The notes under the pieces: model-generated
The model's input: the letters and a program-made list of their open reading frames with translations, nothing else
What the model was told of the DNA's origin: nothing
Databases searched by the model: none
Translations under genes and position numbers: made by a program
Part shown: piece by piece, positions 17,273 to 19,965 of the stretch
Numbering within the stretch: position 1 is the first letter of the stretch
How the letters are laid out: each line of letters begins with the position of its first letter
Source: Affinundibacterium seohonense
Lineage (GTDB): Bacteria; Pseudomonadota; Gammaproteobacteria; Burkholderiales; Burkholderiaceae_D
Assembly: GCF_014284305.1 (NCBI RefSeq)
Contig: NZ_JACOFW010000003.1
Span: forward strand, 148,476-212,475
Reading direction: 5' to 3'
DNA length: 64,000 nucleotides

Positions 17273-17836
17273 CTAGGGTAACTCCCTACTTAGCGCGCCA
17301 ATTGGCTTATTTTTGAGGAGACTCCAGCCGGACGACAAACTGTCTTGTCGTTTCGTATCATTTTGCTGCACGGTGTAGGTCCATAAAATTTCAGTGAAAC
17401 TAAGCTTAAATTGCTCCGTCGGCAAATCATCAGGATGCGTTTGCAATTGAATCTCGCTCACCAAGGCGTCTTTCAGCGTAATCGTGATGATATTTGCGGT
17501 TTTATCGCCAGAATTGCGGGCAATAAATATCTTGGTTGGTTGATCTGCACCGGCTCCTATCACAGCAGCGCGCAAACAATAGTCATACAGTTTCACCGAT
17601 GTGTTATCGACATATTTCACCAGCGTGAATTCAGTGATCACCGGACGACCCGAGGTGCGAGCTTGATTACTGACATCTGTGGTTACTTGCTGCTTCATAC
17701 CTTGATGTAGTGACACTAGCTCAATACAAAATCCGGTCGGCCCGGTACCTCTGTCAAAACGGGAGTTAACAGTCTCGGCGTTGTCGCTGCCGCTAAATAT
17801 GCTCTGATCACCCGGCTGTAATAAAATTAAATCCAT
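17273..17836 (-). CDS. hcp: Hcp-family T6SS tube protein
   Basis: A 187-residue protein of the Hcp1 family (PF05638), whose hexameric rings form the inner tube of type VI secretion systems. Recognisable are FTLVKYVDNTSVKLYDYCL, the following strands with IITITLKDALVSEIQ, and the near-terminal FKLSFTEILWTYTVQ. It is somewhat longer than usual, with about 20 extra C-terminal residues. It lies 32 bases downstream of the TssB-TssC fusion gene on the same strand, as in the common tssB-tssC-hcp order. It has no signal peptide. No other T6SS gene is in the window. Confidence 0.85.
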   Translation of the reverse strand: MDLILLQPGDQSIFSGSDNAETVNSRFDRGTGPTGFCIELVSLHQGMKQQVTTDVSNQARTSGRPVITEFTLVKYVDNTSVKLYDYCLRAAVIGAGADQPTKIFIARNSGDKTANIITITLKDALVSEIQLQTHPDDLPTEQFKLSFTEILWTYTVQQNDTKRQDSLSSGWSLLKNKPIGALSRELP

Positions 17837-17868
17837 AGCAACTCCTAAAATAGGTCAACGTACTGGAT

Positions 17869-19965
17869 TTAACTTGGAAGATTGGCGACCAAACGAATCG
17901 AAGCGGCCAATTCTTCCAATTGAAAGTGCGGTTTCAAAAACACCGTGGCGCGATAGTAACCAGGCTCGCCCGGCACGTCTGTGACCACCACACAGGCTTC
18001 GCGTAATGGGTAGGCTGCTTTCGCTTCCTGCGAGGCGTTATCGTCCAGCAGCACATAATTGGCAATCCAAGCATTAAGGTAGCTTTCGACATTGCCTCTT
18101 GTCAGGAAACCTCCAATCTTCTCGCGCATAATCACTTTTATATAATGCGCAAAACGTGAGGCAGCCAGCATATAGGGCAGCATCGCCGAGATTTTTGCGT
18201 TCGCAATGGCCGAGTCAGAAAAATGTTTCTTTGGCAAATTAGTGGTTTGACTGCAAAAAAAGGCGGCTTTGCCAGTGTCCTTGCAATGACACAGAGAAAT
18301 GAAACCCATATCATTTAATTCTTTTTCACGCCTATCGCTAATATATATTTCGGTCGGACAAAATAATTCGGTCGCACCGCTGGTGGTAGTGTCGGTGTAA
18401 CTTGCCAAGCCTTCGACCAAGCCGCCCCCCTCTACGCCACAAATGGCCGCCGTCCAGTTATATAAAGAAAACGCATTGGTAATGCGCTCGGCCAGCAAAT
18501 ATGCCGGATTGCCCCACAAAAGATGATCGGCCTCTGGATCGGCATAGCTGATGGCTTCGCCGGTTTTGGAAAAGCGAATCGGATTGAGTGCGCTGACACC
18601 TTCTTCGTCAAAATTGACGCCCTCACACGGTGTAGCATTGCGTTTCCCAGGTGCGCCATAAGGTAGGCGCAACAAGACACGCGGCAAGGTCAAGGTGACA
18701 TAGCGCGAATGTTCCATTTCACGAAACGCGTTCCACCCGTTCAGTTCGTGACTTTCAAAAGTCTCCTTGAAATCAGGTGGCTCGTCTAACTGATCAAAGC
18801 CACTCAAACGGTACAGCTCCTGTGATGCTTGGGCGATGAAGGGCGCATGCGCCGCAGCTGCCACCTCTGCTATTTTCCCCAAAAAATCCAAGTCACTGCC
18901 GCTATTGCCGAATGCATAATCACCCACTAGCAAGCTGTAAGGATAGCCGCCGTAGGTGCCGTATTCGGCTTCATAGATCAGTTTGAACAAGGTGTTTTGG
19001 TCAAATTCGACCGTGTTCATCATATCCCTGCGTAACTCTTCTTTTGTGGCATGGAAAACGCGCAGCTTGAGCGTGGCGCTTGTTTCGGTATTCATCACCA
19101 AATAGTGCAGGCCGCGCCAAGTCGCTTCGATTTGCTTGAAGCCTGGGCAGTGCATTACGGCTGATAGTGTACTGCTGAGTTTTTTATCAATCAGAGCCAG
19201 CAGTTCATCGATCACTGCAATCGCACCTCGCTGCTTCGCTTGCGTCATACGAGCGGCAGCAGACGCATCGCTCTCCGAAAAATACAAGTTCATTTGTTTA
19301 ACGAAAGGAGCTAGCGTCATCTTCCACGCTTCAACATTCGAGCTAGAGATTTTGGCTAACTGAGTTGCACATTTCTCCATAGCATCAGCATTGATCGCGT
19401 CAACTGTGTCACTCACGGGAACGGCGGCAATTGGCGGGTCGACATTGGTTTTCGCCTCAACCGAGTTGGTTGCCTCTACCTTCGCTACTGCCGGTCTTCT
19501 CGGTTGCGCTACATCGATTAAGGCATCGAGTGGACGTGCAAGAGCATCATCTAATTCCACGTTGGATTGGAGATCACGAATTTGGCTGCGTTCATTGTGA
19601 AGGCTTTTGAGTGATGGCAAGGCATCAATCACTTTCATCGGCTCAAATGCGTCGATGTTGGAGAAGCTCATTACCTGATCAAGCGAATTACCGCTGAGGT
19701 GGCTGCTGAGGGGTTTTAAATTCACCCGTGGCAAAATGGTGGCCATCACGTCGTTGAAATTGTCACGATCAATGTCGATCATGCTACGCTTTTTTAAGGG
19801 TACTTGCGTATCCGGCTCTTCCCAACTGCCCTTTAAGTCAGCGAAAATACCCACAATAAAAGGCAACTCTTTTTTTTCGATGGCCCCGCCAGTTTCCACA
19901 TCGTAGGTAATTTTTACCCGCGGTGGCCTCACACGCAGGAGTTTTTTTTGCACACTTTCAGTCAT
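17869..19965 (-). CDS. tssBC: Fused T6SS contractile sheath protein TssB-TssC
   Basis: One 698-residue chain carries both sheath subunits. Residues 1 to about 150 match TssB (KKLLRVRPPRVKITYDVETG, ELPFIVGIFADL, IDIDRDNFNDVMATILPR). A linker rich in A, V, P and T (about 155-205) leads into a complete TssC (FKQIEATWRGLHYLVMNTET, YGTYGGYPYSLLVGDY, and the end PGYYRATVFLKPHFQLEELA). TssB and TssC are normally separate proteins that form the VipA/VipB-like sheath. The frame is uninterrupted through the junction, so this is a true fusion at sequence level. The downstream hcp gene completes a tube-and-sheath pair. Confidence 0.9.
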   Translation of the reverse strand: MTESVQKKLLRVRPPRVKITYDVETGGAIEKKELPFIVGIFADLKGSWEEPDTQVPLKKRSMIDIDRDNFNDVMATILPRVNLKPLSSHLSGNSLDQVMSFSNIDAFEPMKVIDALPSLKSLHNERSQIRDLQSNVELDDALARPLDALIDVAQPRRPAVAKVEATNSVEAKTNVDPPIAAVPVSDTVDAINADAMEKCATQLAKISSSNVEAWKMTLAPFVKQMNLYFSESDASAAARMTQAKQRGAIAVIDELLALIDKKLSSTLSAVMHCPGFKQIEATWRGLHYLVMNTETSATLKLRVFHATKEELRRDMMNTVEFDQNTLFKLIYEAEYGTYGGYPYSLLVGDYAFGNSGSDLDFLGKIAEVAAAAHAPFIAQASQELYRLSGFDQLDEPPDFKETFESHELNGWNAFREMEHSRYVTLTLPRVLLRLPYGAPGKRNATPCEGVNFDEEGVSALNPIRFSKTGEAISYADPEADHLLWGNPAYLLAERITNAFSLYNWTAAICGVEGGGLVEGLASYTDTTTSGATELFCPTEIYISDRREKELNDMGFISLCHCKDTGKAAFFCSQTTNLPKKHFSDSAIANAKISAMLPYMLAASRFAHYIKVIMREKIGGFLTRGNVESYLNAWIANYVLLDDNASQEAKAAYPLREACVVVTDVPGEPGYYRATVFLKPHFQLEELAASIRLVANLPS

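What the first reader, a model, noticed from the sequence alone, without database searches (positions are those of the whole stretch)
17273..19965. Isolated T6SS sheath-and-tube module with TssB and TssC fused in one chain
The 698-residue chain contains a complete TssB region, a short low-complexity linker and a complete TssC region without stop or frameshift, followed by hcp. No baseplate, membrane complex, VgrG or ClpV gene is in the window. Sheath subunits are normally separate proteins and T6SS genes normally cluster. A one-chain sheath protomer with its own tube protein, placed alone in a housekeeping operon, could be an orphan contractile device, a structure used with a distant T6SS, or a reduced remnant under selection.
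Basis: partly seen in the sequence, partly recalled or inferred. Interest (0 to 1): 0.78.

Follow-up and report, generated by a model that had tools for sequence, protein, structure and literature searches.

The report
Stranded fused T6SS sheath and tube
This bacterium has kept only the sheath (its two usual subunits joined in one protein) and the inner tube of a bacterial injection machine and lacks its base, anchor and spike; relatives show that the joined sheath belongs to a little-described branch of the machine that seems to work without the usual recycling motor.

Summary
Window 17869-19965 (-) encodes one uninterrupted 698-aa chain with TssB and TssC regions, followed by hcp (17273-17836). 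The genome (99% complete) has no other TssC and no detected TssK, TssF, TssM, VgrG hub or ClpV.

The fusion is not unique. It marks a T6SS branch in beta-, gamma- and alphaproteobacteria, usually beside a complete cluster (gene order of Burkholderia T6SS-5, minus clpV). All 12 genomes searched whose only TssK is this branch's type lack ClpV, and the ClpV-binding motif before TssC occurs in 45 of 55 separate TssCs but 2 of 62 fusions.

The isolated sheath+tube pair is the odd part. It recurs in two congeners (one shared event) and, locally, in two other families. In the congeners both frames stayed open with dN/dS about 0.22 (about 29 stops expected if neutral), although TssC lost about 16% of positions invariant in complete systems (window copy: 11%).

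Best reading: remnant of a ClpV-less fused-sheath T6SS, unable to inject, kept under weakened or altered selection, perhaps as a self-assembling sheath/tube polymer. Slow decay is a serious rival: one isolated pair (G646) already has a broken hcp.

The parts
17869..19965 (-). tssBC: one gene for the fused sheath protomer, 698 aa (stop codon included)
19513..19935 (-). TssB (VipA) region, residues 11-151
   Evidence: Pfam PF05591
19258..19512 (-). Linker between the TssB and TssC cores, about residues 152-236; residues 157-184 are modelled as disordered
17878..19209 (-). TssC region: VipB residues 253-575 and VipB_2 residues 586-696
   Evidence: Pfam PF05943 and PF18945
17273..17836 (-). hcp: tail-tube protein, 187 aa, 33 bases downstream of tssBC

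Best explanation
Shown by comparison: the 698-aa chain belongs to a distinct T6SS branch in which TssB and TssC are one chain, ClpV is absent from genomes that have only this branch, and the ClpV-binding motif ahead of TssC has been lost. In this genome the searched parts of the machine (baseplate TssK and TssF, membrane protein TssM, VgrG hub) are gone and only sheath and tube remain. Shown for two congeners and inferred for the window: the pair is still kept intact by purifying selection, weaker than in most complete systems. Inferred: without baseplate, spike and membrane anchor it cannot inject. A ready-paired TssB-TssC chain with no ClpV to take it apart most likely self-assembles into polysheath-like tubules, with or without Hcp inside, and acts as a cytoplasmic structure and not as a secretion device.
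For: 51 of the 80 related loci kept are open fusions, 38 of these with an Hcp like the window's in the fetched stretch. Complete clusters: [TssBC]-Hcp-TssE-F-G-VgrG hub-DUF2169-pentapeptide-DUF3540-PAAR-like-(J?)-K-L-M. ClpV over its cut-off in 15 of 32 fusion genomes, and in 0 of the 12 whose only TssK is the divergent type. LL[DENQS]x[ILV] ahead of the TssC core: 45 of 55 separate TssCs, 2 of 62 fusion rows. No TssK, TssF, TssM N-domain, VgrG hub or ClpV in G000. G198 and G247 carry the same two-gene remnant with a shared junction, tssBC dS 0.425 in the range of the flanks, dN/dS 0.22 for tssBC and 0.24 for hcp, and no stops against a simulated mean of 29 (minimum 16 in 300 runs). In the tree the window's sheath falls with complete relatives and not with G198/G247, so its isolation looks like a separate event. 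[quoted passage not shown]
Against: TssC positions invariant in complete beta systems are changed in 10.6% (G000), 16.2% (G198) and 15.6% (G247) of cases, against at most 4.8% in any of 23 complete systems: constraint is relaxed. The changed TssC positions do not overlap between the two lineages beyond chance, so there is no sign of a shared new task. The strong sigma-54 site seen upstream of tssBC in the nearest complete relatives is not found for the three remnants. One isolated pair in another family, G646, has a frameshifted and truncated hcp. dN/dS of 0.22 is above 11 of 12 usable complete-system pairs for TssC, but one pair (L034/L035) is similar at 0.19, and hcp at 0.24 is only a little above the highest complete pairs at 0.18-0.20. 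Canonical sheath assembly in V. cholerae falls 140-fold without TssE (PMC5797969). Selection on the window copy was not measured; expression is unknown.
Confidence: 0.5

Rival explanations
1. Functionless remnant in slow decay: the T6SS was lost and the two genes that stand first in the operon have simply not broken yet.
For: Changed invariant TssC positions in G000, G198 and G247; no strong sigma-54 site upstream; isolated pairs recur and one (G646) has a broken hcp.
Against: G198 and G247 share the junction, so the pair has diverged for dS 0.425 with dN/dS 0.22 and no stops, where about 29 were expected. The window copy is open over 885 codons and its TssB keeps all invariant positions.
Confidence: 0.37
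2. The pair works with T6SS parts encoded elsewhere in the genome.
For: G247, a congener with the same kind of remnant, does have a separate canonical T6SS on other contigs.
Against: G000 and G198 have no TssK, TssM N-domain, VgrG hub or ClpV, and G000 has no TssF.
Confidence: 0.04
3. Assembly or sequencing artefact: the rest of the cluster is missing from the draft, or the fusion is an error.
For: The genome is a draft of 163 contigs.
Against: The pair sits inside a contig with long flanks on both sides; 51 of 80 related loci have the same fusion; two congeners show the same isolation.
Confidence: 0.03
4. A stand-alone tail device such as a phage tail, pyocin or extracellular contractile injection system.
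For: Sheath plus tube is the core of all contractile tails.
Against: Both genes match T6SS-specific families and the model's nine significant PDB matches are all T6SS sheaths; no other tail gene was noticed in the window, and no VgrG/GPD hub is in the genome.
Confidence: 0.02

Closest known systems
Burkholderia T6SS-5 (PMC6335564, passages read)
   Same: Complete fused-sheath clusters of betaproteobacteria have the same gene order: tssB, tssC, hcp, tssE, F, G, vgrG, two pentapeptide-repeat genes, DUF3540, PAAR-like, tssJ, K, L, M (TssJ by position only).
   Different: T6SS-5 has separate tssB and tssC and a clpV; the fused-sheath clusters have one tssBC and no clpV. The window has only tssBC and hcp. 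Kinship to T6SS-5 by phylogeny was not tested.
TssCL of roseobacters (PMC9515649, passages read)
   Same: TssB (VipA) and TssC (VipB) domains in one protein.
   Different: TssCL is about 1,684 aa with two VipA and one VipB, and sits beside separate tssB and tssC; here the fusion has one of each and is the only sheath gene. The paper states TssCL was not detected outside Alphaproteobacteria.
Canonical T6SS sheath VipA/VipB and Hcp (PDB 3j9g, 5mxn and others)
   Same: Domain content and fold of the sheath; Hcp tube.
   Different: Two separate proteins recycled by ClpV through an N-terminal helix of TssC (PMC5048182, PMC4239648, passages).
Francisella T6SS, which lacks ClpV and uses ClpB (PMC10433429 passage; PMC7182274 and PMC6063899 seen as listings)
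   Same: A T6SS without ClpV.
   Different: From what I recall it has separate sheath proteins IglA and IglB (PMC2660368 passages name them as two proteins) and a complete apparatus.

Membership tests
T6SS sheath proteins (TssB and TssC) | VipA and VipB/VipB_2 regions over curated cut-offs | tested here: met
T6SS tube protein (Hcp/TssD) | PF05638 over its cut-off | tested here: met
   (67.9 bits against 23.5); the narrower TIGR03344 stays below its cut-off
Working T6SS | Baseplate, membrane complex and VgrG genes in the genome | tested here: not met
   no TssK, TssF, TssM N-domain or VgrG hub in G000; TssE, G, J, L not sought genome-wide
Fused-sheath T6SS branch | TssB and TssC in one open frame, followed by the branch's Hcp | tested here: met
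Fused-sheath T6SS branch | Complete cluster tssE-M beside it | tested here: not met
Roseobacter TssCL | Two VipA plus one VipB, about 1,684 aa, beside separate tssB and tssC | tested here: not met
   definition from PMC9515649
Self-assembling polysheath | Tubules form without baseplate and without ClpV | not testable with these tools
   needs expression and electron microscopy

The most novel reading that the evidence does not exclude
A fused, ClpV-free sheath plus its tube has been turned, more than once, into a stand-alone cytoplasmic polymer with a job other than secretion: part of a contractile tail domesticated as a cell structure.
Probability: 0.22. Interest if true: 0.8.

Novelty: new variant of a known kind. 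Interest (0 to 1): 0.6.

Why it matters
The best-studied T6SS sheaths are built from two proteins and recycled by ClpV or, in Francisella, ClpB. A branch with a one-chain protomer, no ClpV and no ClpV-binding motif is a natural test of whether sheath recycling by a dedicated motor is needed at all, and offers a simpler protomer for structural work. The stranded sheath+tube pairs raise the question of what a contractile sheath is good for when it cannot fire.

Tried and rejected
Considered and set aside: sequencing artefact (the fusion is open in 51 of 80 related loci); phage tail or eCIS (matches are to T6SS families); partner genes elsewhere in G000.

Led nowhere: remnants of tssE-M or of the sigma-54 activator in the window (tblastn; blastn and tblastx of the two intergenic stretches). 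A weak 24-residue similarity to the activator gene of G218 beside hcp in G247 (E 0.02) was not confirmed at DNA level (scores at the level of shuffles) and is not used. Loss of the same TssC positions in the two lineages: not beyond chance; one Hcp position is shared (p 0.04, not corrected). A degenerate sigma-54-like site 316 bp upstream of tssBC in the window is reached by shuffled sequence in 24% of cases. The strong sigma-54 site is not universal: it is absent from G339, Chitiniphilus, Chitinolyticbacter and Dyella loci, and only 2 of 13 further complete loci have it at 9/10 or better. The AlphaFold model has low confidence (mean pLDDT 65.4) and was used only for nearest folds and the disordered linker. 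The idea that the G198/G247 sheath simply sped up after a deletion from a G218-like state was dropped: in 4 of 5 flanking genes G218 and G247 are the closest pair (dS 0.14-0.31; the fifth gives 0.33 against 0.27 for G198/G247), yet their tssBC dS is 0.82, so the complete cluster of G218 is probably a later replacement.

Rows dropped: in the tree, 11 of 117 rows: L005, L006, L038, L114 and L123 (repeats of genomes kept under other ids), L040 (close relative of L037), L047, L101 and L103 (TssB stretch partial or odd), L116 and L119 (separate genes of the same genus). The 62 fusion rows include at least five such repeats. In one search the stretch scanned reached five residues into the TssC core for separate genes but not for fusions. 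Alphaproteobacterial fusions were left out of the invariant-column tests. Three of 15 complete pairs had saturated dS for TssC, and several of the usable ones have dS above 1.

Full report
OBSERVATION. The chain described is there: 698 codons on the minus strand at 17869-19965 with no stop, and hcp (187 aa) at 17273-17836. Pfam gives VipA (11-151), VipB (253-575) and VipB_2 (586-696) in the one chain and Hcp in the second gene. NCBIfam has both sheath-subunit models over their cut-offs in the chain; the TssC model is matched from position 35 on. The source genome G000 is 4.87 Mb and 99.04% complete. It holds one VipB, one Hcp, no TssK, no TssF, no TssM N-domain, no VgrG hub and no ClpV above the curated cut-off; its best hit to the ClpV model scores 817 bits against a cut-off of 885 and is probably ClpB. 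TssE, TssG, TssJ and TssL were sought only in the window, without a hit.

PLACE. The pair is not in the housekeeping operon but opposite to it, between rsfS and an Oxidored_FMN gene and a TetR-type gene that precede rlmH. Eleven relatives were fetched around rlmH: in four (G176, G344, G218, G247) rsfS and rlmH are neighbours, in four (G209, G165, G132, G227) the rsfS block is inverted, and in three (G234, G335, G331) rsfS was not in the stretch; none had hcp, tssBC or the two flanking genes there. So the pair was probably inserted or moved here; it is not the stump of a cluster known at this site. The genus is probably in Oxalobacteraceae: G339, same genus, has a contig of the same length (94,971) and match position as the record of L057, named Oxalobacteraceae bacterium nzgw559.

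THE FUSION IS A FAMILY. Of the 80 best related loci kept from genome contigs, 51 carry TssB and TssC in one open frame, 38 of them with an Hcp close to the window's in the fetched stretch. They come from Trinickia, Robbsia, Herbaspirillum, Janthinobacterium, Chitiniphilus, Chitinolyticbacter, Dyella, Rhodanobacter, Marinomonas, Thalassomonas, Thalassolituus, Rhodocyclaceae, SAR324 and alphaproteobacterial MAGs such as Holosporales. In a FastTree tree of 106 sequences (midpoint root, support values not examined) the 53 fusions and 5 alphaproteobacterial separate pairs form one group apart from the other 48 separate pairs. The linker runs from 29 to 343 residues.

COMPLETE CLUSTERS LACK CLPV. 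Beside most betaproteobacterial and gammaproteobacterial fusions lies a T6SS cluster. In G218 the order is [TssBC]-Hcp-TssE-F-G-VgrG hub-DUF2169/pentapeptide-pentapeptide-DUF3540-PAAR-like-(TssJ?)-K-L-M (Pfam; PAAR-like and the Trinickia TssE confirmed; no family matched the presumed TssJ; order in other loci). This is the order of Burkholderia T6SS-5 as listed in PMC6335564 (passages) with tssB and tssC fused and clpV missing. Marine gammaproteobacteria have [TssBC]-Hcp-(E)-F-G-(J?)-K-L-M. In the alphaproteobacterial loci my single-sequence searches recognised no other tss gene. TssK was found in 40 of 43 fusion genomes searched; the three without are G000, G198 and one alphaproteobacterial MAG (G322). 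ClpV passes its cut-off in 15 of 32 fusion genomes. Twelve genomes were in both searches and have the divergent, low-scoring TssK as their only one (G218, G287, G305, G309, G310, G316, G317, G318, G319, G320, G328, G329): none has ClpV over the cut-off. Of the 15 with ClpV, 14 also have a canonical TssK; G308 has two low-scoring TssKs. G325 has a canonical TssK without ClpV. The TssC helix that binds ClpV carries an LLDEII-type motif in one class of T6SS (PMC4239648, passages; see also PMC5048182, passages). A motif LL[DENQS]x[ILV] ahead of the TssC core occurs in 45 of 55 separate TssCs and in 2 of 62 fusion rows. PMC4239648 also describes canonical TssCs that lack the motif and still use ClpV, so motif loss alone would not prove ClpV independence.

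ISOLATED PAIRS. In the genus, 43 genomes were searched and five carry the fusion. G218 and G339 have complete clusters. G000, G198 and G247 have only tssBC and hcp in the fetched stretches. G198 has no TssK, TssM N-domain, VgrG hub or ClpV; G247 has a separate canonical system on other contigs. G198 and G247 hold the pair where G218 has its cluster and share the stretch that joins hcp to the neighbouring gene. In 4 of 5 flanking genes G218 and G247 are the closest pair (dS 0.14-0.31; fifth gene 0.33), yet tssBC dS is 0.82 between them and 0.425 between G198 and G247, whose flanks lie at 0.25-0.46. So the reduced pair was probably already in the common ancestor of G198 and G247, and G218 received its complete cluster later. 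The window's sheath groups with complete relatives (G001, G287, Trinickia, Robbsia, Janthinobacterium) and not with G198/G247, so its isolation looks independent. In an order-level sample of 399 genomes there were 15 further fusion loci: 13 have TssE after hcp, 2 do not. Those two, G646 and G658, show no TssE-M match within the 18 kb fetched; the rest of their genomes was not searched. G658's pair is intact. G646's hcp is frameshifted near its start and cut short.

SELECTION. Between G198 and G247 dN/dS is 0.22 for tssBC and 0.24 for hcp; six flanking genes give 0.02-0.09. Of 15 complete-system pairs, 12 have usable dS for TssC: 11 give 0.014-0.09 and one (L034/L035) 0.19; for Hcp the range is 0-0.20. 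Under no constraint the observed divergence would leave about 29 stops (minimum 16 in 300 runs); there are none. Constraint is therefore real but weaker than usual. In TssC, positions invariant in 23 complete beta systems are changed in 10.6% (G000), 16.2% (G198) and 15.6% (G247), against at most 4.8% in any complete system; with 36 complete systems the figures are 9.8, 16.7 and 16.1% against at most 3.4%, while G646 and G658 stand at 0.7 and 2.1%. TssB of the window keeps all of its invariant positions, and Hcp of the three remnants is within the range of complete systems. The changed TssC positions of G000 and of G198/G247 overlap no more than by chance, which points to relaxation and not to a shared new task. 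A sigma-54 site (9 or 10 of 10 key bases) lies upstream of tssBC in the nearest complete relatives (G001, G287, G218, G129, two Trinickia, Robbsia, Janthinobacterium) but not in G339; the three remnants have only chance-level sites. G218 has a sigma-54 activator gene at the far end of its cluster. Among 13 further complete loci only 2 have the strong site, so this is a trait of part of the branch.

HOW IT WORKS. In the complete systems I infer an ordinary contractile T6SS whose protomer comes ready-paired and whose sheath is used once or cleared by another protease or chaperone. The review PMC10433429 (passages) notes that V. cholerae without clpV still fires infrequent single productive rounds, so such a system is plausible. 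In the window there is nothing known to nucleate, anchor or tip the tail. [quoted passage not shown] the same paper reports a 140-fold fall of normal sheath assembly without TssE. My best guess is therefore a self-assembling tubule, still selected in G198/G247 and possibly in G000. A function beyond that is not shown. Slow decay is the main rival and is already visible in G646.

WHAT IS KNOWN. A TssB-TssC fusion, TssCL, is in print for roseobacters (PMC9515649, passages), but with two VipA domains, about 1,684 aa, and with separate tssB and tssC kept. Seven answered searches of the paper library on fused sheaths or missing ClpV and two on accessory genes and taxa (56, 65) showed me, in listings and in the passages I read of eight papers, no description of a fused sheath as the only sheath gene or as the mark of a ClpV-less T6SS. 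Most listed papers were seen only as listings; two with the words 'fused TssB' or 'fusion of TssB' (PMC10781749, PMC5614524) were not opened. Papers outside that library were not searched.

VERDICT. Its fused sheath is ordinary within a little-described branch of T6SS; its isolation is the unusual part and is recurrent. I file it as a new variant of a known kind.

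Noticed in passing
L056, L064, L097, L098, L099: Five alphaproteobacterial loci have separate tssB and tssC although they fall inside the fused group in the tree, so the fusion may have been split again or arisen more than once.
   Followed up: no
L069, L073, L074, L079, L080, L085, L088, L105, L109: Fused TssBC in alphaproteobacterial MAGs, several named as Holosporales-type endosymbionts, with no other tss gene recognised in the locus by single-sequence searches; in the genome of L069 a TssK was found, outside the fetched locus.
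   Followed up: partly
L218:9700-10320: Isolated pair of G646: hcp is frameshifted near its start and truncated while tssBC is open and conserved.
   Followed up: partly
G218:C34:14781-16670: A ClpV-like sequence of 728 bits with two internal stops, possibly the remains of a canonical T6SS in a genome that now has only the fused-sheath system.
   Followed up: no
L179, L180, L181, L183: In four congeners the block with hemF, nadD and rsfS is inverted relative to rlmH compared with the window.
   Followed up: no
L004, L007, L008, L046, L057, L095: The TssB-TssC linker is 166-343 residues long in some species, in parts alanine-rich; what it does on the sheath is unknown.
   Followed up: no
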